From Acidimicrobiia bacterium (GTDB lineage Bacteria > Acidobacteriota > Terriglobia > Bryobacterales > Bryobacteraceae), in assembly GCA_016871315.1 (NCBI GenBank), contig VFZE01000040.1:1-54925 (forward strand): DNA of 54,925 bases. The letters run 5' to 3'. This document shows, one piece after another, positions 3,021-50,204 of the stretch. Every line of letters starts with the position of its first letter. Position 1 is the first letter of the stretch. The position numbers and the translations under genes were made by a program. Below the pieces are notes generated by a model. The model made no database searches and was not told where the DNA came from. It was given only the letters and a program-made list of their open reading frames with translations.

Positions 3021-4373
3021 ATGACTCTCAGCGACGTCCTCAAGCGCTTTGATGAAGCCTCCATCCACCGCGTCAAGCTCGGCGCCTTCGACATCGACGG
3101 CATCCTCCGCGGCAAGCACGTCAGCCGCAAGAAATTCGAATCCTCCGCCGCCTCCGGCCTCGGCTTCTGCGATGTCATCTTCGGCTGGGACATCGCCGAC
3201 CTCCTCTACGCCCACCCCGGTGTCACCGTCACCGGCTGGCACACCGGCTTCCCCGACGCCACCGCCCGCATTGATCTGGAAACCTGCCGCATCATCCCCT
3301 GGGAGCCCGGCACCGCCCTGCTCCTGCTCGATCTCTGCGACAAACACGGCGACCCGCTCCCCCTGGCCCCGCGCAACCTCTTCCGCCACGTCGCCTCCAA
3401 AGCTTCCGCCCTCGGCTACGACGCCCACTTCGCCGCCGAGTACGAATTCTTCCTCTTCCGCGAATCCCCGGAATCGCTCCGCCAGAAAAACTTCCGCAAC
3501 CTCACCCCGCTCTCGCCCGGCATGTTCGGCTACTCCGTTCTCCGCGCCTCCCAGCACTCCCCCATCGTGCTCGACCTCTTCGATCAACTCGAATCCTTCG
3601 ACGTGCCGCTCGAAGGCATCCACACCGAAACCGGCCCCGGTGTCTATGAAGCCGCCATCCACGCCGCCAACGGCATCCACCCTGCCGACCGCGCCGCCCT
3701 CTTCAAAACCGCCGCCAAGGAAATCTGCAGCCGCCACGGCATCATCCCCACCTTCATGGCCAAGTGCAACCACGACCTGCCCGGCTGCGGCGGCCACATC
3801 CATCAATCCCTCTGGGATCACGAAAAAGGCGCCAACCTCTTCCACGCCGACGACCACTCCATGTCCGACCTCATGCAGAGCTACACCGCCGGCCTCCTCC
3901 GCTATCTGCCCGAACTCATGCTCATGCACTGCCCCACCGTCAACTCCTACAAGCGCACCGTACCCGGTACCTGGGCCCCCATCAACGCAACCTGGGCCAT
4001 CGACAATCGCACCTCCGCCGTCCGCGCCATCCCCGGCCGCGCCAAATCCGCGCGCACCGAAATGCGCCTCACCGGAGCCGACGCCAATCCCTACCTCGCC
4101 ATGGCCGCCTGTCTCGCCGCCGGCCTCGAAGGCATCGACAATCAGCTCGACCTTCCTCCCGCCACCTCCAACGCCTACGAAGCCTCGGACGCGCCCGCCC
4201 TCCCCTCCTCCATCGAGCAAGCCATCGCGCTCTTCCGCCAAAGCCATCTCGCCCGCCGCTGGTTCACCGATGCCTTCGTCGACCACTACGCCGCCACCCG
4301 CGAATGGGAAGCCCGCCAATACTCCAAAGCAGTCACCGATTGGGAACTCGCCCGCTACTTCGAATCCATATGA
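3021..4373 (+). CDS. Glutamine-synthetase-like gamma-glutamyl ligase
   Basis: A 450-residue member of the GS type I fold. Seen: the N-terminal beta-grasp part, GCGGHIHQSLW near residue 255 (ATP/glutamate loop), VNSYKR near 307, NRTSAVR near 328 and a GADANPYLAMAA segment near 354. These match the PuuA/GlnA3/GlnA4 group, which joins glutamate to amines instead of ammonia. The adenylylation motif of housekeeping GlnA is not evident at the C-terminus. Its gene starts 4 bases after the permease stop, and its TGA overlaps the dehydrogenase ATG. Known homologues make gamma-glutamyl polyamines or gamma-glutamylethanolamide; which amine is used here cannot be read from sequence. Catabolic rather than assimilatory use is inferred from context. 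Confidence 0.8.
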   Translation: MTLSDVLKRFDEASIHRVKLGAFDIDGILRGKHVSRKKFESSAASGLGFCDVIFGWDIADLLYAHPGVTVTGWHTGFPDATARIDLETCRIIPWEPGTALLLLDLCDKHGDPLPLAPRNLFRHVASKASALGYDAHFAAEYEFFLFRESPESLRQKNFRNLTPLSPGMFGYSVLRASQHSPIVLDLFDQLESFDVPLEGIHTETGPGVYEAAIHAANGIHPADRAALFKTAAKEICSRHGIIPTFMAKCNHDLPGCGGHIHQSLWDHEKGANLFHADDHSMSDLMQSYTAGLLRYLPELMLMHCPTVNSYKRTVPGTWAPINATWAIDNRTSAVRAIPGRAKSARTEMRLTGADANPYLAMAACLAAGLEGIDNQLDLPPATSNAYEASDAPALPSSIEQAIALFRQSHLARRWFTDAFVDHYAATREWEARQYSKAVTDWELARYFESI

Positions 4374-5476
4374 CCTTCTCTTTCCCCACCACCATCCTGT
4401 TCGGCGCCGGCGTCATCGCGCAGCTCCCGCAAACGCTCGAACGCAAACACGCCCGCAAACCCATGCTCGTCTCCGACCACGGCCTCCTCTCGACCCCGGT
4501 CTTCACCCGCGTCCACTCCCTCATCCCCCACGCCGCCACCTTCACCAACGTCAATCCCAACCCCACCGAACAAAACGTCCTCGACGGCGTCGACTTCTAC
4601 CGCGCCCATAACTGCGACTCCATCGTCGCCCTCGGCGGTGGCTCCCCCATCGATGCCGCCAAAGCCATCCGCCTCAAGGTCACCCACACCCTCCCCCTCG
4701 CCGAATACGACGACCTGCTCAATGGCGCCGGCTTGATCACTGCTGACCTGCCCCCATTCATCGCCATCCCCACCACCGCCGGCACCGGCAGTGAAGTCGG
4801 CCGATCCTCCGTGATCACCATCGCCGCCACCAACCGCAAGACCGTTATCTTCAGCCCCTACTTAATCGCCGAACCCGCCATCGTCGACCCCGAACTCACC
4901 CTCGGCATGCCCCCGCACATCACCGCCGGCACAGGCATGGACGCCCTCACCCACAACGTCGAAGCCTATCTAGCCAAGGGCTACCATCCTATCTGCGACT
5001 CCATCGCCCTCGGCGGAGCCAAACTCGCCTCCGATAATCTCCCCATCGTCATGAGAGACCCCGCCAACATCGACGCCCGCGCCTCCATGCTCATGGCCTC
5101 CATGATGGGCGCCATCGCCTTTCAAAAAGGTCTCGGCGCCACTCACTCCCTAGCCCACCCCCTCTCATCCGAATACGCCATGCACCACGGCACCGCCAAC
5201 GCCGTCCTCCTCCCCTACGTCCTCGAATTCAATCAAGACGTCTCGAATGACCGTCTCGCCTCACTCGCAAACCACCTGAACGTCGCGGACCTTCCCGCCC
5301 ACATCCGCCACCTGAACCAGCTCGGCAACATCAACCCCGCCCTCCGCGCCTACAACATCCCCGAATCCGCCCTCCCCTCTCTCGCCGCCAAAGCTATCGA
5401 AGACGGCTGCCATCAACTCAACCCCCGCCCCTGCTCGGAACAGGATCTCCTCTCCCTCTACCGCGAAGCCTGGTAA
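4370..5476 (+). CDS. Iron-containing (group III) alcohol dehydrogenase
   Basis: 368 residues. GGGSPIDAAKAI near residue 88 is the NAD(P)-binding loop, and TTAGTGSEV near 134 is typical of the family. Metal ligands are visible as Asp and His in GMDALTHN (about 190-195), a His in GATHSLAHPL (about 259-263) and a His in AMHHG (about 273). The start ATG overlaps the ligase stop (ATGA), so translation is coupled. It would oxidise an alcohol, or reduce an aldehyde, in the cytoplasm. With the permease and gamma-glutamyl ligase it could oxidise the hydroxyl of a gamma-glutamylated amino alcohol. No aldehyde dehydrogenase or gamma-glutamyl hydrolase follows, so the route is incomplete here. Confidence 0.85.
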   Translation: MTFSFPTTILFGAGVIAQLPQTLERKHARKPMLVSDHGLLSTPVFTRVHSLIPHAATFTNVNPNPTEQNVLDGVDFYRAHNCDSIVALGGGSPIDAAKAIRLKVTHTLPLAEYDDLLNGAGLITADLPPFIAIPTTAGTGSEVGRSSVITIAATNRKTVIFSPYLIAEPAIVDPELTLGMPPHITAGTGMDALTHNVEAYLAKGYHPICDSIALGGAKLASDNLPIVMRDPANIDARASMLMASMMGAIAFQKGLGATHSLAHPLSSEYAMHHGTANAVLLPYVLEFNQDVSNDRLASLANHLNVADLPAHIRHLNQLGNINPALRAYNIPESALPSLAAKAIEDGCHQLNPRPCSEQDLLSLYREAW

Positions 5477-6026
5477 CCGCCACAAGTCCCCCATCGGCGC
5501 GGAGGTGCGGAACAACAGGAAACCGTCCGTGGCCATCCTGGAGATGTCCTGGCTCGGAAGCCGCGGGGCTGCCTTTCAGCCGTCCTGTATGCACCTCTTA
5601 GCCGTCACGCCCGGCTTCTATGGAGTACTGAACCGTATCCTGCGGTCGGGGTTGAGCGTCGTGTTCAGCTTACGCTGTGAAGCACCCCTGCGCGCAGACA
5701 CAGCGCCTCGGGAAGTACTCCCGTTTCCCCATCCACGAAACGTTGAGCGGCATCCCCATACACAGCGTCTTCCTCAATGGCGAGGTCGCGAAGGCCGGAG
5801 TCTGTGTTTAGCCGGCGCAGGTACTCAATGAATGAAACCCGCTCCTCCCTGCTATCCTCCCCAAAAACAAGCCTTTAACCTTTTGTTTTAACTTTGTCTT
5901 CCTCTCCCCTGCAAACAAAAAGCTTTCCTCAAGCTTGACGGCCCTTCCGCCGATCATTCAAAATAGCGAAAGGTTTCGGCGATCGTGTAGTCCGCCAAGC
6001 CACTTTGAGCGATCAGAAATACTCCG
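5477..6026. other. 550-base gap with possible gene remnant
   Basis: No convincing gene. A minus-strand frame open between stops at 5877-5875 and 5667-5665 translates as protein-like text (for example SFIEYLRRLNTDSGLRDLA), but it has no usable start and I do not recognise it. A small hairpin, GGCTG / CAGCC around CCTTT (5567-5581), resembles the TTCAGCC hairpins at 264-301. The last 170 bases are AT-richer than the surroundings and probably hold the promoter of the penicillin-binding protein gene. Confidence 0.35.
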
Positions 6027-7175
6027 ATGCGGAATCTCATTCTCTTGCTCGCTTTGAGCCTCTCCATGCTGGCGGTGCCCGGCACGCCTCCTGCCAAAAA
6101 GAAGGCGCCCGCCAAGAAGCCTGCGACGACGGCCAAGAAAGCCCCGGCGAAAAAGCGCACCACCACGCGAACCCGCGCCTCCCGTTACAGCCCTTGGAAG
6201 GAACCCTCCTTCGCCGACTCCACCATCGGCGACAACATCGATGGCGAAGACCTCACCGTCCGCCGCGCCGCCGTCGACGCGCTTGGACCCTTCAACGGCA
6301 CCGTCGTCGTCTCCGACCCCTACACCGGCCGCGTCCTCTCCATCGTCAACCAGAAGCTCGCCTACAAGAGCGGCTTCCAGCCCTGCTCCACCTTCAAGGT
6401 CCTGGTCGGCCTCATGGCGCTGAGCGAAGGCATCATTGAGCGAGAAACCCCCATCCGCCTGTACGGCCGCACATCAATGAACCTCACCCAGGCCATCGCC
6501 AAATCCAACAATCCTTTCTTTGAGAGCCTCGGCCGCAAGCTCGGCTTCGATAAGGTCCACTACTACGCCCGCCTGTTCGGCCTTGGCGAGCGCGCCACGC
6601 TCAACCGCGAACTCGAGCAGCCCGGCACGCTCCCCGGCGAAGCCCCCAAGCACGGCGGCGTCGGCATGATGTGCAGCTTCGGTGAAGGGATTCTCCTTTC
6701 GCCGCTCCAATACGCCGCCGCTCTCGGAGCCATTGCCAACGGCGGCACTCTCTACTACCTCCAGCACCCGCAAAACTCCGATGACTCCACGGGCTTCCAG
6801 CCCCGCGTCAAACGTCACCTCGACATCTCCCCCTGGATCGACGAAATCAAGCCCGGCCTGACCGGAACCGTCGAATACGGCACCGGCAAGCGCGCCGCCT
6901 TCGATGGCGCCGACCCCATCCTCGGAAAAACCGGCACCTGCACGGACCGCCAATCACCCACTCACCTGGGCTGGTTCGGCTCCTTCAATGAAGTCGAGCG
7001 CAACCGCCTCGTTGTCGTCGTCCTGCTCACCGGCGGACGGCCTGTCAACGGCCCTGTCGCCGCCGGCGTTGCCGGGCAGGTCTACAAGAACCTCTCCGAT
7101 CAGCAATACTTCGCCCAGGACCGCAAGTCCTCACCCGTCGCCCTCGTCAGCCCCGATCATTGCTGCCGGCAATGA
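6027..7175 (+). CDS. Penicillin-binding transpeptidase-domain protein
   Basis: 382 residues. A Sec signal (MRNLILLLALSLSMLAVPG) is followed by a basic Lys/Ala-rich linker (about 23-50). The rest is a bare penicillin-binding transpeptidase domain: S-x-x-K as CSTFK near residue 120, S-x-N as KSNN near 160 and K-T-G as GKTGT near 301. It should cross-link peptidoglycan, or act as a carboxypeptidase or beta-lactam-binding enzyme, in the periplasm. The N-terminal dimerisation domain of class B PBPs such as FtsI is absent, making it short for that class and closer in plan to class D beta-lactamase / MecR-like domains. Its stop overlaps the start of the sialidase gene. Confidence 0.85.
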   Translation: MRNLILLLALSLSMLAVPGTPPAKKKAPAKKPATTAKKAPAKKRTTTRTRASRYSPWKEPSFADSTIGDNIDGEDLTVRRAAVDALGPFNGTVVVSDPYTGRVLSIVNQKLAYKSGFQPCSTFKVLVGLMALSEGIIERETPIRLYGRTSMNLTQAIAKSNNPFFESLGRKLGFDKVHYYARLFGLGERATLNRELEQPGTLPGEAPKHGGVGMMCSFGEGILLSPLQYAAALGAIANGGTLYYLQHPQNSDDSTGFQPRVKRHLDISPWIDEIKPGLTGTVEYGTGKRAAFDGADPILGKTGTCTDRQSPTHLGWFGSFNEVERNRLVVVVLLTGGRPVNGPVAAGVAGQVYKNLSDQQYFAQDRKSSPVALVSPDHCCRQ

Positions 7176-8380
7176 GCTGCCGCGCGCTTCCCCTCATCCT
7201 GCTCGCCGCCGCGCTCGCGTCCGCCCAGGAAAAGCCGTTCCTCGACACACAGCTCATCTTTCCACTCGATAAGCTCCACAACCACTCCTCCGCCGTCGTC
7301 GAACTCCCGGGCGGCGAACTCTTCACCGTCTGGTACCGCGGCTCCGGCGAGCGCACCGCCGACGATGTCGTCATCATGTCCTCCCGTCTCCGCCGCGGCG
7401 CCAAAGCCTGGACCCCGCCCCTCGTCATCGCCGACACCCCCGGCTTCCCCGACTGCAATCCCGCCGCTTTCGTAGACTCCCGCCGCCGCCTCTGGCTGAT
7501 GTGGCCCGTCATCCTCGCCAACGAGTGGCACACGGCGCTGATGAAGTACCGTATCTCCTCGAACTACGCCGACTCTACCAAGCCCCCGCGCTGGGACATC
7601 TCCGACAACATGCTCTTCGTCCCCCGCAACTTCACCGACGTCGCCCGCCGCGCCATCGAGCCACGCCTCAAATCCGCGACACCCGGCACCCCGCAGGAAA
7701 CCTACTTGAAGCGCCTCTGGGAAAACTCCGGCGACAAGTATTTCATGCGCATGGGATGGATGCCCCGCTCACGTCCCGTCGAGCTACCCTCCGGCCGCAT
7801 CATCGTTCCTCTTTACTCCGACGGCTACGACTTCTCTTTGATGGCCATCACCGATGATGGCGGTCTCACCTGGTCCACCTCGGAGCCCCTTGTCGGAGCA
7901 GGCAACATCCAGCCCTCCATCGCCCGCAAGCGCGACGGGACGCTGGTCGCCTACATGCGTGACAACGGCCCCGCTCCCAAGCGCCTCCACGTCTCGGAAT
8001 CCAAGGATGACGGCATTACCTGGAGCCCTGTCCGCGACTCCGAATTTCCCAACCCCGGCTCCGGAGCCGACATCATCGTCCTCAAGAACGGCATGTGGGC
8101 TCTCATTTACAACGACACCGAGCGCGAGCGCCATTCCCTCGCCATCTCCCTCTCCGACGATGAAGGAGCAACCTGGAAATGGAAGCGTCACCTGGAACTC
8201 GACACCCGCGCCGAACGCCGCTCCTCTTTCCACTACCCCTCCATCCTCCAGGCCTCCGACGGCACTCTCCACGCCACCTACAGCTATTTCATCAACCACC
8301 TCCCCAACACCGAACCCCGCAAATCCATCAAGCACGCCCACTGCAACCTCGCCTGGCTCCAGCAAACAACCCCTCAATAG
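7172..8380 (+). CDS. Exported sialidase-fold (BNR/Asp-box) protein
   Basis: 402 residues with a signal peptide (CRALPLILLAAALASAQ). Three Asp-box repeats are visible: ITDDGGLTWS (about 226), SKDDGITWSP (about 277) and SDDEGATWKW (about 328), consistent with a six-bladed propeller. Family members are exo-sialidases or other glycan hydrolases, but many are uncharacterised. An Arg triad is plausible (RGSGERT near residue 52, RSRPVELPSGR near 195) but not proven. The ATG at 7172 overlaps the TGA of the PBP gene (ATGA), so the two are co-translated; a TTG 12 bases upstream is a less likely start. The link with a peptidoglycan enzyme suggests a role at the cell envelope. Confidence 0.8.
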   Translation: MSCRALPLILLAAALASAQEKPFLDTQLIFPLDKLHNHSSAVVELPGGELFTVWYRGSGERTADDVVIMSSRLRRGAKAWTPPLVIADTPGFPDCNPAAFVDSRRRLWLMWPVILANEWHTALMKYRISSNYADSTKPPRWDISDNMLFVPRNFTDVARRAIEPRLKSATPGTPQETYLKRLWENSGDKYFMRMGWMPRSRPVELPSGRIIVPLYSDGYDFSLMAITDDGGLTWSTSEPLVGAGNIQPSIARKRDGTLVAYMRDNGPAPKRLHVSESKDDGITWSPVRDSEFPNPGSGADIIVLKNGMWALIYNDTERERHSLAISLSDDEGATWKWKRHLELDTRAERRSSFHYPSILQASDGTLHATYSYFINHLPNTEPRKSIKHAHCNLAWLQQTTPQ

Positions 8381-8419
8381 CCGCCGCGGCGCCGGGACGC
8401 ACGGGGCCAAGCCCGCTCA

Positions 8420-8736
8420 CAAGTAACTGCGGTTTTGAAGAGCGAACCGGATTGGACCCGCCTCCCCGCCGGCCTGCCCCCCGGCGTCCCCATTCTTCTG
8501 CGGCTCTGTCTTGAGAAGAACGTCAGGCATCGCCGCAGCGATGCGACGGACGTGCGCCTCGACATCGAGTTGGCATTGAATGAACGGCCGCCTGTGGCTA
8601 TCCGGCCAGTTGGCCGCCCGGCGGCAAGGTCCTTCTCTCCGGAGTCAGCGTTGGGGAGGTTGTCGGGTTGCAGAACTCCGGCGCCGCAGCGTCGATTACG
8701 GTTCTCCTCAACTGGCCCTCCACCCTGAAGAAGTAG
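8420..8736 (+). pseudogene. Deleted Ser/Thr protein kinase with WD40-type tail
   Basis: Two ends of one gene type are fused. In one frame (from 8420) VLKSEPDWTRLPAGLPP, then LLRLCLEKNVRHRR and DARLDIE-like text, is the C-lobe end of acidobacterial Pkn kinases (R-C-L-x-K-D/N-x-x-x-R). From about 8620 a different frame reads SGAASITVLLNWPSTLKK and stops at 8734-8736; this is the typical last line of the WD40-type sensor region of the same kinases. The catalytic lobe and nearly the whole propeller are missing, so an internal deletion plus frameshift has destroyed the gene. Confidence 0.6.
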
Positions 8737-45542: not shown

Positions 45543-45569
45543 TTGTACTTTCCAGGGGCACGCTACAAT
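45543..45569 (+). promoter_or_regulatory. Promoter-like pair (TTGTAC / TACAAT) before the PfkB gene
   Basis: TACAAT (45564-45569) ends 6 bases before the ATG at 45576, so the mRNA would be leaderless. TTGTAC occurs twice in tandem (45536-45541 and 45543-45548); the nearer copy is 15 bases from the -10 box, a short spacing. Confidence 0.45.
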
Positions 45570-45575
45570 TGGTTC

Positions 45576-46493
45576 ATGTCGCTTGTTGTTGTCGGATCGC
45601 TTGCCTACGATGCTGTTGAGACGCCGCATGGCAAGGTGGATCGCATGCTGGGCGGTTCCTGCACTTATGTTTCGGTGGCGGCGAGTTTCTTCTCACCGGT
45701 CTCCATCGTCGGGGTTGTCGGCGATGATTTTGCCGAGGAAGATGTTCAACTGCTTCAGGGCAGAGGGATTGACGTGGAGGGGGTGGAGCGCGTTCCGGGC
45801 AAGACTTTTTTCTGGAGCGGCGTCTATTCCGAGGACATGAATGAGCGGACGACGCTGGCCACCGATCTGAACGTGTTCGCCGATTTCCAGCCGAAGTTGC
45901 CGGCTTCCTACAAGACGAAGCCGTATCTGTTTCTGGGCAACATACAGCCGCAGCTGCAAAAAGATGTGCGGCGGCAGATGAACGGCGTGCGGTTGGCCGG
46001 CGGCGACACGATGAACCTGTGGATCGAGCAGACGCGGGAGCCATTGCTGGACACGATCAAGGATTGGGACTTTCTGTTGATCAACGACGGCGAGGCGCGG
46101 ATGCTGAGCGGCGAGCACAACATCAAAAAGACCGCCCGCGCGATTCTCGAGATGGGACCGAAGACGCTGATCATCAAGCGCGGCGAGTATGGCGCGCTGC
46201 TGTTTCACGACGATGATGTGTTTTCCGCGCCCGGCTACCTGTTGGACAGCCTGCATGATCCGACCGGGGCGGGCGACTGCTTCGCGGGGGGCTTCATGGG
46301 CTATCTGAGTTCCCGCAACGTGGATTTGAACGACCCCGCCGCCGACCGGAAGGAACTGAGCCGCGCCGTGATCTATGGTTCGGTGATGGGCAGCTTCTGC
46401 TGCGAGAGGTTTGGCGTGGAGCGCTTCCGAAGCCTGACTCGTGCCGAGATCGATAACCGTTTCCAAGAGTTCAAAAGCCTCACCGATTTTTGA
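45576..46493 (+). CDS. PfkB-family carbohydrate kinase
   Basis: 305 residues. VVGSLAYDAVETPHGKV opens the ribokinase fold, GGSCTYVSVAASFF (about 26) is the first PfkB region, and HDPTGAGDCFAGGFMGYL (about 227) holds the anion-hole GAGD with the catalytic Asp. TLIIKRGEYGALLF precedes it. It phosphorylates a sugar or nucleoside in the cytoplasm; this branch is annotated as ribokinase/adenosine-kinase-like without proof. The ATG at 45576 is preferred to an earlier in-frame ATG at 45543, which would lie in the promoter. Confidence 0.85.
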   Translation: MSLVVVGSLAYDAVETPHGKVDRMLGGSCTYVSVAASFFSPVSIVGVVGDDFAEEDVQLLQGRGIDVEGVERVPGKTFFWSGVYSEDMNERTTLATDLNVFADFQPKLPASYKTKPYLFLGNIQPQLQKDVRRQMNGVRLAGGDTMNLWIEQTREPLLDTIKDWDFLLINDGEARMLSGEHNIKKTARAILEMGPKTLIIKRGEYGALLFHDDDVFSAPGYLLDSLHDPTGAGDCFAGGFMGYLSSRNVDLNDPAADRKELSRAVIYGSVMGSFCCERFGVERFRSLTRAEIDNRFQEFKSLTDF

Positions 46494-48000
46494 GGTATTG
46501 CTGGCGCTGGCCTGCGCCGCCGCCTTGAGTGCGGCCGCGGTGGCATGGTTTCACCAGCAGGGCTACCTGTATTACTACGGGGACGCCGAGGCGCACCTTA
46601 ATATCGCGCGGCGCATTGCGGATTCACGCACGCCGGGACCGTTTCAGTTCGGCACGGTGTGGCTTCCATTGCCGCACGCGGCAATGGCTCTGTTTGCACG
46701 GAACGATGAGTTGTGGCGGAACGGGCTGGCGGGTGCGTATCCGGCGGCGGCGGCGTTTGTTGTGGCGTGCGGATTCCTGTTTGCTTCGCTGCGGCGGGTG
46801 ACCGGTTCGCGGGCGGCGGCATGGGGCGGAATGGCGGTGTTCGCGCTGAACCCGAACTTGCTTTACCTGCAATCGACGGCGATGACGGAGGCGTATCTTT
46901 TTGCGTTTCTGTTCGGGCTGCTCTACTTTTCGCTGAGGGGCAACGCGGTGATAGCGGGGTTGTGTGCGGCGGCGGCGGCGCTTTGCCGGTATGAGGGTTG
47001 GGCGCTGATACCGCTGGTGGCGGTGTATCTGTTGTGGAAGACGCGGAAGTGGCGGACGGCATTGGTTTTCGGGGCGATCGCGTCGGCGGGGCCGGTGGCG
47101 TGGGTGGCACACAACATCTATTACTATTCCGATCCGCTGGAGTTTTACGAGGGCGAGTGGTCGGCGAAGGCGATTTATCAGCGGTCGCTGGATGCGGGGA
47201 TGGAGCGGTATCCCGGGGATGGGAACCTGGCCGTTGCGGCGCGGTATTACGCGGAGGCGGCGGTGCTGGTGTGCGGGATCGCGTTGGTTTTACTGGCGGT
47301 TATCGGGCTGGTAGGTTCGTTCCGCAAAAAGAGGTTCTGGTGGGTGGCGCTGTTGGGGGCGGGGCCGGCCTTTTATGTCTACAGTATGTATTCTGGTGGG
47401 ACGCCGATCTACGTGCCGAATCTGTGGCCGCACAGTTACTACAACAGCCGTTACGGGCTGGCCCTTCTGCCATTCCTGGCTTGGGGGGCGGCGGAGGCGG
47501 TGGCGCTGGTACGGGGCAAGTGGCGGTTGGGATTTTTCGCGGTGGTGCTGGCGGCGGGGATCGCGCCGTGGGCGGATGGGGAGGGGATTTGCTGGAAAGA
47601 GTCGCAGGTGAACAGCGAGGTGAGGCGGGCGTGGACGCGGGAGGCGGCCGATTACCTGAAAGAGCATTACCGGGGAGGCGGCATCGCGGCCGGGTTTGGG
47701 GATTTGACGGGGATCATGCGGCAGGCGGGGATACCGATTCGGGAAATGGTGCATGAAGGGAACCTGCCACACTGGGACGCAATGATGATGCGGCCGGAGC
47801 TGTTCTTAGGGGAAGAATGGGCGGTGACATTTTCCGGCGATAAACTGGCGACGGCGATTTTGCGGGCGGACCGGAAGGCGTTCGCAGCGAAGGGAACCGA
47901 TGCGGCGGCAATCCTGCCGCGGTATGAGCGTGTGAAAATGATCTATATCAAAGGCGGGCCGGTAGTGGAGATCTACCGGCGAGCCCAATCACAGCCATGA
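46441..48000 (+). CDS. GT39-like membrane glycosyltransferase/mannosyltransferase-type protein
   Basis: 519 residues with 9-11 hydrophobic segments. After the first helix comes YLYYYGDAEAHLNIARRI (about 42), the loop that carries the acidic catalytic residue in GT-C enzymes (D-x-E), then TVWLPLPH (about 71). A soluble C-terminal part of about 120 residues follows the last helix. GT-C enzymes use polyprenyl-phosphate sugars to modify proteins or lipids on the outer face of the membrane. The GTG at 46441 gives a 52-base overlap with the PfkB gene; a TTG at 46498 would start at the first helix. The coding strand is very G-rich here. Confidence 0.75.
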   Translation: MPRSITVSKSSKASPIFEVLLALACAAALSAAAVAWFHQQGYLYYYGDAEAHLNIARRIADSRTPGPFQFGTVWLPLPHAAMALFARNDELWRNGLAGAYPAAAAFVVACGFLFASLRRVTGSRAAAWGGMAVFALNPNLLYLQSTAMTEAYLFAFLFGLLYFSLRGNAVIAGLCAAAAALCRYEGWALIPLVAVYLLWKTRKWRTALVFGAIASAGPVAWVAHNIYYYSDPLEFYEGEWSAKAIYQRSLDAGMERYPGDGNLAVAARYYAEAAVLVCGIALVLLAVIGLVGSFRKKRFWWVALLGAGPAFYVYSMYSGGTPIYVPNLWPHSYYNSRYGLALLPFLAWGAAEAVALVRGKWRLGFFAVVLAAGIAPWADGEGICWKESQVNSEVRRAWTREAADYLKEHYRGGGIAAGFGDLTGIMRQAGIPIREMVHEGNLPHWDAMMMRPELFLGEEWAVTFSGDKLATAILRADRKAFAAKGTDAAAILPRYERVKMIYIKGGPVVEIYRRAQSQP

Positions 48001-48851
48001 ACATTCCATTTATCAAGGCGCAAGGCGCGGGGAACGATTTTCTTTTCACCTATGAGAGGGACCTGCCCGGGGCGCTGGATGAGGAGCGGTTGCGTGAACT
48101 GGCGAAGGCGATCTGCGCGCGGCACACGGGGTTGGGAGCGGACGGGTGGTACGTGATGGGGGAGGCGGAGGGGTGCGCGGCAAGAATACGTTTGTATAAC
48201 AGCGATGGGAGTCCGGCCGAGTTGTCGGGCAACGGAACGCGGTGTGCGGCGGCGATTCTGGTGGATGCGGGTTGGAGTTCCCCGGAGGTGCGAATTCAGA
48301 CGGGTTCGGGCCCGAAGCAGTTACGGGTAGTGGAGAGGGGCGGAAGGCGATTCCGGTTTGAGATGGACATGGGGCGGCCGCGGAAGGCGACGTTGGGATA
48401 TGCCCTGCGGCTTGCTGGGGAGGAACGGCAGGTGACGATTCTGGACGTGGGGAATCCGCAATGCGCGGCGGTGGTGGACAGTCTGGAGTTCGATTGGAAA
48501 AAACTGGGCGCCGAGATTGAGAAACACTCCGATTTTCCGAACCGTACCAATGTATCGTTCGTGCGAAAGATGGATGAGCATACAATTGAAGCGCGCTTTT
48601 ATGAGCGTGGTGCGGGTCCGACGCTGAGTTCGGGCACGGGATCGACGGGCGCGGCGGCGGCAGCTGTTTTACTGGGGTTGGTGAAGAGTCCGGTGCGAGT
48701 GGAAACGGAGGCCGGGCCGCTGGATTTGCGCTGGGAGGACTCCAGGGAAAGCGGCTCTGAGCCGATAGAAGGGTTGGGCAAGGCGCCTGCCGGCTCGATC
48801 TATTTGACGGGACCCGCCGAGATCACCGCTCAAGGCGATTATTTCTGGTAG
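47997..48851 (+). CDS. dapF: Diaminopimelate-epimerase-fold protein lacking both catalytic cysteines
   Basis: 284 residues, full length, two DapF half-domains. AQGAGNDFLF (about 9) and RIRLYNSDGSPAE (about 63) match DapF, but the first catalytic Cys of the E-x-CGNG motif is Ser (ELSGNGTRC, Ser 77) and the second, of T-x-ACGTG, is also Ser (TLSSGTGSTG, Ser 212). Codons at both sites are TCG, so this is neither a sequencing read of TGA nor selenocysteine. In characterised DapF the two Cys are the acid/base pair and changing either abolishes epimerisation. The other substrate-binding parts (NRTNVSF, ERGAGPT) are kept. Start overlaps the GT stop by 4 bases. Either a new activity or a Ser-based variant is possible. 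Confidence 0.8.
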   Translation: MNIPFIKAQGAGNDFLFTYERDLPGALDEERLRELAKAICARHTGLGADGWYVMGEAEGCAARIRLYNSDGSPAELSGNGTRCAAAILVDAGWSSPEVRIQTGSGPKQLRVVERGGRRFRFEMDMGRPRKATLGYALRLAGEERQVTILDVGNPQCAAVVDSLEFDWKKLGAEIEKHSDFPNRTNVSFVRKMDEHTIEARFYERGAGPTLSSGTGSTGAAAAAVLLGLVKSPVRVETEAGPLDLRWEDSRESGSEPIEGLGKAPAGSIYLTGPAEITAQGDYFW

Positions 48852-48875: not shown

Positions 48876-50204
48876 ATGCAATCGAACCGTTCCGCAAAGA
48901 TGACCATTGCCGGTGCGCTGGCCGAGAAGATTAAGAGCAAGCAGGCGCGCTGCGGCGTGGTGGGCCTGGGCTACGTAGGGCTGCCGTTGGCGGTGGAATT
49001 AGGCAGCACGGGTTTCCCGGTGACAGGGCTGGACGTGCAAGCGTCGAAGGTGGGCGAGATCAACGCGGGACGGTCCTATGTTCAGGATGTGGGGGGAGAT
49101 CAGGTAAACGCGCTGGTCGCGCAGGGCAAGCTGAAGGCGACGACGGACTTTTCGGTGGTGGCGGAGCTGGACACGATCAACATCTGCGTGCCGACGCCGC
49201 TGCGGAAGACAAAAGATCCGGACATGAGCTACGTGGTGTCGGCCTGTCAGGAGATCGCCAAGCATATCAAGCCGGGGACGCTGGTGATTCTGGAGTCGAC
49301 GACGTATCCGGGGACGACGGATGAGTTGGTGCGGCCGATTCTCGAGAGCGGCGACCTGCGGGTGGGCGAGGAGATTTTCCTGTGCTTTTCCCCGGAGCGT
49401 GTGGACCCCGGCAACGCGCAATTCCACACGAAGAACATTCCGAAAGTGGTGGGCGGATGCACGCCGGCCTGCACGGAACTGGGTGTGCTGCTGTACAAGA
49501 GCGCGCTGGAGACGGTGGTGCCGGTGAGCTCGACGCAGGTGGCTGAGATGGTGAAGTTGCTGGAGAACACCTTCCGGATGATCAACATCGGACTGGTGAA
49601 CGAAGTGGCGTTGATGTGCGGGCGGATGGGGATCGATGTCTGGGAAGTGATCGAAGCGGCGGCGACCAAGCCGTTCGGGTTCATGCCGTTCTATCCGGGC
49701 CCGGGGCTGGGCGGGCACTGCATCCCGATCGATCCTTTTTATCTATCGTGGAAGTCGAAGCAGGCCGGGATTGAGGCACGGTTCATTGAGCTGGCCGGGT
49801 ACATCAACGGTCAGATGCCGCACTTCGTGGTGGACCGTGTGCAACAGGCTCTGAACGAGCATGGCAAGCCGATCAAGGGCTCGCACATCCACATCATGGG
49901 CGTGGCGTACAAGAAGAACATCGAGGACATGCGGGAGTCGCCGGCGCTCGATATCGCGCACCTGCTGGCGCAGCGCGGGGCGAAGCTGAGCTACAGCGAT
50001 CCGTTCGTGCCGGAGTTCAAGGTGGACACGGTGGAGCTGACTTCGCAGGACGCGGTGTCGATGGCGGCGGTATGCGATTGCGTGGTGGTGGTGACCGATC
50101 ACACGGGGATGCCGTACGCGCAGGTGCTGGAGAAGGCGCCGCTGATTTTCGATACGCGGAATGCGCTGAAGGGCTTCCAATCGGACAAGATCGTGCGGCT
50201 GTAG
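48876..50204 (+). CDS. UDP-sugar 6-dehydrogenase (WbpA/WecC type)
   Basis: 442 residues. Rossmann motif VVGLGYVGLPLAVELG (about 28), ESTTYPGTTDELV (about 141), FSPERVDPGN (about 174), the second-domain MVKLLENTFRMINIGLVNEV (about 228) and the catalytic Cys in GLGGHCIPIDPFYL (about 278). It oxidises UDP-GlcNAc or a similar UDP-hexosamine at C6 in two steps with NAD, giving the uronic acid for surface polysaccharide. GAGAGAGG at 48852-48859 is too far upstream to be an ideal ribosome site. The neighbours include a GT-C enzyme, so cell-surface glycan synthesis is likely. Confidence 0.9.
   Translation: MQSNRSAKMTIAGALAEKIKSKQARCGVVGLGYVGLPLAVELGSTGFPVTGLDVQASKVGEINAGRSYVQDVGGDQVNALVAQGKLKATTDFSVVAELDTINICVPTPLRKTKDPDMSYVVSACQEIAKHIKPGTLVILESTTYPGTTDELVRPILESGDLRVGEEIFLCFSPERVDPGNAQFHTKNIPKVVGGCTPACTELGVLLYKSALETVVPVSSTQVAEMVKLLENTFRMINIGLVNEVALMCGRMGIDVWEVIEAAATKPFGFMPFYPGPGLGGHCIPIDPFYLSWKSKQAGIEARFIELAGYINGQMPHFVVDRVQQALNEHGKPIKGSHIHIMGVAYKKNIEDMRESPALDIAHLLAQRGAKLSYSDPFVPEFKVDTVELTSQDAVSMAAVCDCVVVVTDHTGMPYAQVLEKAPLIFDTRNALKGFQSDKIVRL

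What the first reader, a model, noticed from the sequence alone, without database searches (positions are those of the whole stretch)
47997..48851. DapF homologue with both catalytic cysteines replaced by serine
The two Cys of DapF (motifs E-x-CGNG and T-x-ACGTG) are Ser 77 and Ser 212, both encoded by TCG, while the surrounding loops and substrate-binding segments are intact. Known DapF enzymes lose epimerase activity when either Cys is changed. A paired, clean double change in a full-length protein suggests selection for another mechanism or substrate rather than decay. If this is the only dapF in the genome, meso-diaminopimelate must be made in a new way.
Basis: partly seen in the sequence, partly recalled or inferred. 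Interest (0 to 1): 0.75.

Follow-up and report, generated by a model that had tools for sequence, protein, structure and literature searches.

The report
Cell-wall amino-acid epimerase without cysteines
A whole group of soil bacteria carries a version of the enzyme that makes the key D-amino acid of the bacterial cell wall in which both reactive cysteines of the textbook mechanism are serines, apparently as the only copy, so either the enzyme works by an unexpected chemistry or the step is done by something unknown.

Summary
Confirmed: window 47997-48851 encodes a full-length DapF-family protein with Ser77 and Ser212 (both TCG) at the positions of the two catalytic Cys. It is not a decaying oddity. 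The own gene and all 48 relatives read in its order and class are Ser/Ser, as are 64 of 90 genes read from a phylum-wide draw; together they span 36 family-level groups. The ten residues that contact diaminopimelate (DAP) in Anabaena DapF are kept in at least 156 of the 159 Ser/Ser sequences scored. Searches of the window's genome found no other DapF and no DAP dehydrogenase, but found LysA and a DAP-type MurE. In two single-contig chromosomes the Ser/Ser dapF lies in a dapF, ldcA-like, mpl cluster (peptidoglycan recycling). Some Chloroflexota carry Ser/Cys forms; two of seven keep the dapF-dapL gene pair. My best reading: this is the lineage's real DAP epimerase, using two serine hydroxyls where other DapFs use a thiol/thiolate pair. 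No step of that chemistry is shown. Main evidence against: a few near-complete relatives have LysA but no detectable DapF, so another DAP-epimerising route may exist in the phylum. New variant of a known kind; complementation and isotope-exchange assays would settle it.

The parts
47997..48851 (+). dapF homologue, 284 aa, with Ser at both catalytic-Cys positions
   Evidence: TIGR00652 183.4 bits, cut-off 114.65; AlphaFold model mean pLDDT 95.4, closest solved fold Anabaena DapF 9mro
48225..48227 (+). codon 77, TCG = Ser (Cys75 in Anabaena DapF), just before the predicted helix 78-90
48627..48629 (+). codon 211, AGT = Ser (Ala in 42 of 51 Cys/Cys sequences scored); not needed in general, 34 of 159 Ser/Ser sequences have Ala
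48630..48632 (+). codon 212, TCG = Ser (Cys224 in Anabaena DapF), just before the predicted helix 213-225
46441..48000 (+). protein without a Pfam match (membrane protein by eye); its stop overlaps the dapF start by 4 bases (ATGA); homologue beside dapF in 13 of 48 Ser/Ser named loci
45543..46493 (+). PfkB-family sugar kinase, conserved upstream neighbour (homologue in 20 of 48 Ser/Ser named loci)
48876..50204 (+). UDP-glucose/GDP-mannose dehydrogenase family gene, 24 bases downstream

Best explanation
The gene encodes the organism's diaminopimelate epimerase (LL-DAP to meso-DAP), in a lineage-wide form in which both general acid/base cysteines have become serines. SHOWN: the sequence, a predicted DapF fold, retention of the DAP contacts, phylum-wide conservation, and LysA and DAP-type MurE without a Ddh match in the window's genome (Mpl in other Ser/Ser genomes, not in this one). 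INFERRED: that it epimerises DAP, and that Ser77-OH and Ser212-OH at the N-termini of the two opposed helices do the 1,1-proton transfer (one as transient alkoxide, one as acid). My reason for thinking this feasible: removing a very weakly acidic alpha-H has a carbanion-like transition state, so a scarcer but stronger alkoxide loses little rate, provided the closed site places oxygen closer than sulphur would sit. A possible benefit is freedom from the disulfide inactivation known in C. glutamicum DapF.
For: Single DapF found in the window's genome; the only other, weak PF01678 hit is a 4-hydroxyproline epimerase (459.2 bits, cut-off 442). LysA at E=5e-149, MurE with DNPR, no Ddh match (2 of 297 genomes over cut-off, both with Cys/Cys DapF). 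All 38 genomes of families f1 and f8 in the draw have one TIGR00652 match, LysA at E 1e-138 or better and no Ddh over cut-off (DapF letters read in 14 of the 38, all Ser/Ser). DAP contacts N13, N66, G76, N164, N197, E215, R216, G225 in 159 of 159 Ser/Ser sequences, N77 in 156, T/S226 in 156 (contacts from passages of PMC12039745). Ser/Ser dapF beside ldcA-like and mpl in L240, L241, L227, L176, L177, L184, L224. Ser/Cys L186 and L222 keep dapF-dapL, each of the 7 Ser/Cys genomes has one DapF match, and L222 is sister to Cys/Cys L205. Precedent in the wider fold: Ser-Cys hydroxyproline epimerase (PMC4113996).
Against: Cys-to-Ala C. glutamicum DapF almost completely loses activity (PMC5296763), and Cys-to-Ser mutants of this enzyme class are described as hindered (PMC12039745, PMC11602996). 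G287 (100% complete), G299 (94%) and, less reliably, G152, G176, G184 (90-91%) have LysA but no DapF by three profiles, so LysA does not prove that DapF works. The Cys-free (Ser-Thr) relative in print is a dehydratase, not an epimerase. dapL is beside none of 48 Ser/Ser named loci, but beside 19 of 25 Cys/Cys ones. The ldcA/mpl neighbourhood is a minority: mpl in 4 of 48 named and 3 of 11 further Ser/Ser loci, and the window's genome has no Mpl-level hit. G026 also holds a Cys/Cys dapF beside a dapL. His166 is Gln in 65 of 159 Ser/Ser sequences. The enzyme that makes LL-DAP in this genome is not settled.
Confidence: 0.66

Rival explanations
1. The Ser/Ser protein binds DAP but does another job (for example alpha-H exchange, an elimination, or a role in recycling of cell-wall peptides), while an unrelated enzyme, perhaps PLP-dependent, makes meso-DAP.
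For: Relatives with LysA and no detectable DapF; Ser-Thr precedent is a dehydratase; in some lineages linkage to recycling genes, and never to dapL in 48 named Ser/Ser loci; G026 keeps both a Ser/Ser and a Cys/Cys gene.
Against: Among the five Ala_racemase_N hits in the window's genome one is alanine racemase over cut-off, one YggS, two carry a D-serine dehydratase domain, one is LysA, so no spare racemase of that family is evident (other families were not searched); the DAP contacts are conserved; two Ser/Cys forms keep the dapF-dapL pair.
Confidence: 0.2
2. The lineage builds peptidoglycan from LL-DAP and needs little meso-DAP; the protein has drifted to another task.
For: No chemical analysis of acidobacterial walls turned up in the listings of my searches (open-licence papers only).
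Against: LysA (needs a D centre, established knowledge) in 38 of 38 f1/f8 genomes of the draw, and Mpl, whose equivalog is the meso-DAP tripeptide ligase, beside dapF in some lineages.
Confidence: 0.08
3. Decaying paralogue or sequencing artefact.
For: Loss of both catalytic Cys; for the close pair L042/L043 dN/dS is about 0.59, though both distances are small.
Against: Same state in 48 of 48 relatives read and in two single-contig chromosomes (G260, G284); dN/dS about 0.16 against the same-genus gene, with dS near saturation; no stops inside any DapF match listed.
Confidence: 0.01

Closest known systems
Diaminopimelate epimerase DapF, Anabaena/plant type (PDB 9mro, 3ejx)
   Same: Predicted fold (best Foldseek hit 9mro, TM 0.85/0.87), all ten DAP contacts, helix N-terminal placement of the two acid/base positions, NCBIfam equivalog score
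   Different: Both acid/base Cys are Ser; His166 is Gln in the window protein; neighbours are pfkB, a protein without Pfam match and a sugar-nucleotide dehydrogenase, not dapL
Proline racemase superfamily Ser-Cys 4-hydroxyproline epimerase and Ser-Thr trans-3-hydroxyproline dehydratase (PMC4113996, passages)
   Same: Related two-domain fold; natural Ser in place of the first Cys; a pair without any Cys exists (Ser-Thr)
   Different: Other substrate; the Cys-free pair catalyses dehydration, not epimerisation; 14-17% identity to the members listed
C73S and C217S mutants of H. influenzae DapF (PDB 2q9h, 2q9j; titles seen, organism recalled)
   Same: Ser at one of the two positions
   Different: Made in the laboratory and single; here natural, double and conserved over much of a phylum

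Membership tests
DapF (TIGR00652, equivalog) | Score over curated cut-off over most of the length | tested here: met
   183.4 against 114.65 bits, residues 4-250
DapF | DAP-contact residues of the solved closed enzyme | tested here: met
   10 of 10 in P0001; each kept in 156-159 of 159 Ser/Ser sequences
DapF | Catalytic Cys pair | tested here: not met
   Ser77/Ser212; 0 of 2 Cys
DapF | Fold | tested here: met
   predicted model pLDDT 95.4; the 26 best PDB hits are DapF or O-ureidoserine racemase
DapF | Epimerisation of LL-DAP | not testable with these tools
   needs an assay
DAP pathway with meso-DAP wall | LysA and DAP-type MurE, without Ddh, in the same genome | tested here: met
   the DNPR motif as a DAP mark is recalled
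DAP pathway with meso-DAP wall | An identified enzyme making LL-DAP (DapL, or DapD/DapE) | tested here: inconclusive
   TIGR03542 over cut-off in 0 of 61 genomes; best own candidate below the TIGR03540 cut-off; DapD/DapE not searched
Proline racemase / hydroxyproline epimerase | Closest sequence and fold relatives in that family | tested here: not met
   DapF structures rank first
PhzF family (phenazine biosynthesis) | Closest fold relatives in that family | tested here: not met
   first PhzF hit at rank 27, 13% identity

The most novel reading that the evidence does not exclude
A cofactor-free amino-acid epimerase that works without any thiol: two serine hydroxyls carry out the two-base proton transfer in the sole DAP epimerase of most Acidobacteriota and Aminicenantota, perhaps reached through a Ser/Cys stage such as that seen in some Chloroflexota.
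Probability: 0.55. Interest if true: 0.86.

Novelty: new variant of a known kind. Interest (0 to 1): 0.74.

Why it matters
DapF is the textbook case of a thiol/thiolate pair pulling a proton off an unactivated amino acid, and it is pursued as an antibacterial target, among others with aziridino-DAP, which alkylates the thiols. A natural Ser/Ser DapF conserved over much of a dominant soil phylum would show that the thiol is dispensable, would give a ready comparison series (Cys/Cys, Ser/Cys, Cys/Ser, Ser/Ser) for the physical chemistry of proton abstraction, and would predict enzymes immune to thiol-directed inhibitors and to disulfide inactivation. If instead the Ser/Ser protein is not an epimerase, an unknown meso-DAP enzyme is waiting to be found in a major phylum. 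Either result is informative.

Tried and rejected
Second DapF elsewhere in the genome: the only other PF01678 hit (C60, 23.3 bits) is a 4-hydroxyproline epimerase (459.2 bits, cut-off 442). Ddh: no match in the window's genome. A PLP racemase of the alanine-racemase fold as substitute: five Ala_racemase_N hits, namely one Alr over cut-off, one YggS, two with a D-serine dehydratase domain and LysA itself. Third cysteine (Cys83, GNGxRC) as a hidden base: present in 51 of 51 Cys/Cys sequences too and lost in 11 of 159 Ser/Ser, so not a substitute. Ser211 as a needed partner of Ser212: Ala in 34 of 159. Lysine-operon context for the Ser/Ser genes: LysA lies within 4 kb in one locus only (L225). 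TIGR03542 for DapL gave no hit over cut-off in 61 genomes; the best own hit, translated from L238, scores 412.6 against 593.25 for TIGR03540 and best to PRK08175 alanine transaminase (562.4 against 647), so the enzyme making LL-DAP in this genome is not settled. Replacement gene at the empty dapF site in G060: between the pfkB-like gene and mpl only an MgtC-like gene (by eye) and an antisense frame; nothing convincing. Literature: no paper on natural Ser/Ser DapF or on acidobacterial DapF showed in the listings of nine searches; these cover open-licence PMC only.

Rows dropped and limits: L053 (run of N across the second site; one search reads its two pieces as Ser and Ser) and L005 (copy of the window gene) were left out of the 220-row alignment; L024 was scored S/- because its row was cut short, although reads Ser/Ser, and was left out of the 219-row tree. 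Six of 55 genomes with a hit (all one genus, g38) were not read. The match table is capped, so only genomes with a match at about E 8e-57 or better could be read; weaker DapF lineages of the phylum are unread. The named-genome scan used one pattern that asks for Ser at the first site and one that does not, and kept 80 of 566 relatives, so its proportions are no census. Several named loci have short flanks, so neighbour counts are lower bounds.
Full report
OBSERVATION. The window is one contig (C40) of a 6.25 Mb, 166-contig genome, 98% complete. ORF 47997-48851 (+) encodes 284 aa without interruption. Codons 77 and 212 are both TCG. In the alignment to the closest solved structure, Anabaena DapF (9mro), they replace the two catalytic cysteines Cys75 and Cys224. 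The protein is over the NCBIfam DapF cut-off (183.4 against 114.65 bits). An AlphaFold model on 31 sequences has mean pLDDT 95.4; Ser77 and Ser212 each stand one residue before a predicted helix (78-90, 213-225), as the cysteines do at the N-termini of helices 2 and 4 in Anabaena DapF (passages of PMC12039745). The first 26 Foldseek hits in the PDB are DapF or the related O-ureidoserine racemase.

HOW WIDESPREAD. Of 61 genomes (own and 60 relatives), 55 have a homologue. I read the letters in 49 of the 55, the own included, and 49 of 49 are Ser/Ser (L053 was read in two pieces, as a run of N lies between the sites). Serine codons are mostly TCN: 47 of 48 at the first site and 45 of 48 at the second (49 loci of which one is the Cys/Cys L054). 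In an even draw of 297 genomes of the phylum, 290 have a TIGR00652 match, 263 over its cut-off. I read 90 of them: the 30 best-scoring matches, then 60 chosen to span families from the capped list. They are 64 Ser/Ser, 24 Cys/Cys, 2 Cys/Ser. With the relatives, Ser/Ser occurs in 36 family-level groups and Cys/Cys in 13, with only f1 and f46 holding both. Among 80 named loci from a scan biased to Ser at the first site, 48 are Ser/Ser: Acidobacteriota, Aminicenantes, two unclassified 'HR' bins and one MAG titled Arcobacter that branches inside the Bryobacterales. 25 are Cys/Cys and seven Ser/Cys: six Chloroflexota and one Actinomycetota MAG.

SELECTION. In the 159 Ser/Ser sequences scored (three rows set aside, some near-copies kept, see Tried and rejected), the residues that hold DAP in Anabaena DapF (passages of PMC12039745) are kept: N13, N66, G76, N164, N197, E215, R216 and G225 in 159, N77 in 156, T/S226 in 156. 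The 51 Cys/Cys sequences are less strict (N164 in 23 of 51). All ten are present in the window protein. These contacts bind both the reacting end and the distal amino-acid end of DAP, so DAP is the probable substrate. dN/dS against the same-genus homologue is about 0.16, with dS 1.84 (near saturation, so rough); for the close Ser/Ser pair L061/L058 it is about 0.05, but two other close pairs give about 0.59 (L042/L043) and 0.25 (L046/L047). A position that does relax is His166: His in 51 of 51 Cys/Cys, but Gln in 65 of 159 Ser/Ser, including the window protein.

HISTORY. With the trait columns removed, Ser/Ser needs two changes on the tree of 219 rows and two on a better-modelled tree of 79; one origin is not excluded. 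The Ser/Ser rows fall in the clade that also holds Anabaena, Chloroflexota and Bacillota DapFs, apart from the 27 Cys/Cys and Cys/Ser rows of the acidobacterial genomes, which form a second clade with an inserted residue (ERGVExET). Ser/Cys needs five changes on the larger and four on the smaller tree; L222 (Ser/Cys) is the sister of L205 (Cys/Cys) (support 94, 100). In L186 and L222 the Ser/Cys gene is followed directly by dapL, as dapL is beside dapF in 19 of 25 Cys/Cys named loci; the other five Ser/Cys loci show no dapL hit. Each of the twelve named genomes tested, all seven Ser/Cys ones among them, has one DapF match (their completeness is not told). So a Cys-to-Ser change at the first site has happened at least once beside an otherwise unchanged dapL.

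PATHWAY. Searches found no other DapF in the window's genome: the second, weak PF01678 hit (C60) is a 4-hydroxyproline epimerase. DAP dehydrogenase is over its cut-off in 2 of 297 genomes (G135, G216), both read as Cys/Cys, and has no match in the window's genome. LysA, which needs meso-DAP (established knowledge), is in the window's genome (495.8 bits against 297.9) and at E 1e-138 or better in all 38 genomes of families f1 and f8 in the draw, each with one DapF match. Over the 64 Ser/Ser genomes read in the draw, 55 have LysA at E 1e-60 or better, against 15 of 24 Cys/Cys and 0 of 2 Cys/Ser (typed). MurE is present and has the DNPR motif that I recall as typical of DAP-adding MurE. The enzyme that makes LL-DAP in this genome is not settled; DapA, DapB, DapD and DapE were not searched.

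CONTEXT. In two chromosomes in one contig (G284, G260) the Ser/Ser dapF is followed by an LdcA-like gene (NF008424 120.5 and 146.2 bits, below its cut-off of 378) and by mpl (439.9 and 417.7 bits, cut-off 388.7); dapF and the LdcA-like gene overlap by 4 bases in both, stop codon included. The same order is in L227, L176, L177, L184 and L224: mpl in 4 of 48 named Ser/Ser loci and 3 of the 11 further Ser/Ser loci examined. Mpl and LdcA recycle meso-DAP peptides (established knowledge). The more frequent neighbours are pfkB (20 of 48), methylthioadenosine phosphorylase (14 of 48; the query is over TIGR01694) and a homologue of the window's upstream protein (13 of 48). dapL is beside none of the 48. 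The window's own genome has no Mpl-level hit (best 7.5e-54 against 9e-155 in G060).

MECHANISM. In canonical DapF one Cys thiolate takes the alpha proton and the other Cys gives one from the far side (passages of PMC12039745; PMC8142540). Changing Cys to Ala almost completely abolishes activity in C. glutamicum DapF (passages of PMC5296763), and Cys-to-Ser is described as hindering catalysis in this enzyme class. Nature has nevertheless used Ser in the wider fold: a Ser-Cys hydroxyproline epimerase, and a Ser-Thr pair that catalyses a dehydration (passages of PMC4113996). I propose that the Ser/Ser DapF keeps the two-base reaction with hydroxyls. This is an inference from conservation and context. 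The loss of activity in mutants does not refute it, because a protein tuned for sulphur would leave oxygen too far from the alpha carbon; a lineage that evolved to Ser could have tightened the site. Positions that separate Ser/Ser from Cys/Cys of the same clade (in Anabaena numbering V213 to F or I, L249 to T, L179 to W) are candidates for that, but differ by ancestry too, and I had no coordinates to test their place. C. glutamicum DapF is inactivated by a disulfide between the two Cys; Ser/Ser would be immune. The same state in Aminicenantes, which I recall as anaerobes, argues against oxidation as the sole reason.

AGAINST. Seven of 297 genomes have no TIGR00652 match: G287 (100% complete), G299 (94%), G316 (94%), and at 90-91% G122, G152, G176 and G184. 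LysA is strong in G287, G299, G152, G176 and G184, weaker in G316 and G122. PF01678 finds nothing in the seven nor in G058 and G060 of the own class, and an alignment-based profile finds nothing convincing in eight of these nine (G122 not given; best 0.19 in G176). LysA in G058 and G060 was not tested. In G060 a pfkB-like gene and mpl remain close together without dapF between them. Either these are losses with an unknown replacement or gaps in assembly; if a replacement is widespread, the Ser/Ser protein need not be the epimerase. G026 carries a second, Cys/Cys dapF beside a dapL over its cut-off (619 against 593.25 bits), branching with family f33, which looks like a transferred pair.

VERDICT. 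By the membership test it meets the sequence, substrate-site and fold criteria of DapF and fails the catalytic-Cys criterion: it very probably binds DAP and probably works like DapF; whether it is an epimerase must be assayed. Papers: passages only were read of PMC12039745, PMC11602996, PMC4113996, PMC8142540 and PMC5296763; all others were seen as search listings.

Noticed in passing
G287, G299, G152, G176, G184, G316, G122 (LysA hits); G058 and G060 (LysA not tested): Genomes 90-100% complete with no detectable DapF-family protein, five with a strong LysA and none of the seven in the draw with Ddh over cut-off: an unknown meso-DAP route or missing pieces.
   Followed up: partly
L106 (G066) and L135 (G081): Cys/Ser DapFs (first Cys kept, second Ser) in the other, insert-bearing clade, in genomes without a LysA match.
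   Followed up: no
L054 / L228 8952-11071 (G026): A second, Cys/Cys dapF directly upstream of dapL in a Ser/Ser genome, branching with family f33: probable transferred pair.
   Followed up: partly
L223: A MAG titled Arcobacter sp. whose DapF branches inside the Bryobacterales and whose neighbours match those of that group: probably mislabelled or contaminated.
   Followed up: no
L080, L099, L111, L142, L143 (family f28): A separate Ser/Ser group with Ile in place of the GNGxRC cysteine and an altered second loop (ASGSS); three of them have SGDG in place of SGNG.
   Followed up: no
L004 (G000:C60) 4251-8641: Hydroxyproline degradation cluster: DapA-family protein, 4-hydroxyproline epimerase over cut-off, and two genes that look like amino-acid oxidases by eye; the epimerase has Cys at both sites by its motifs.
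   Followed up: partly
G124, G214, G252, G259, G267, G275, G301, G307 (family f46) and G158 (f59): LysA-family matches reported with one or two in-frame stop codons inside, repeated over a family: possible pseudogenes or matches running past the end of the gene.
   Followed up: no
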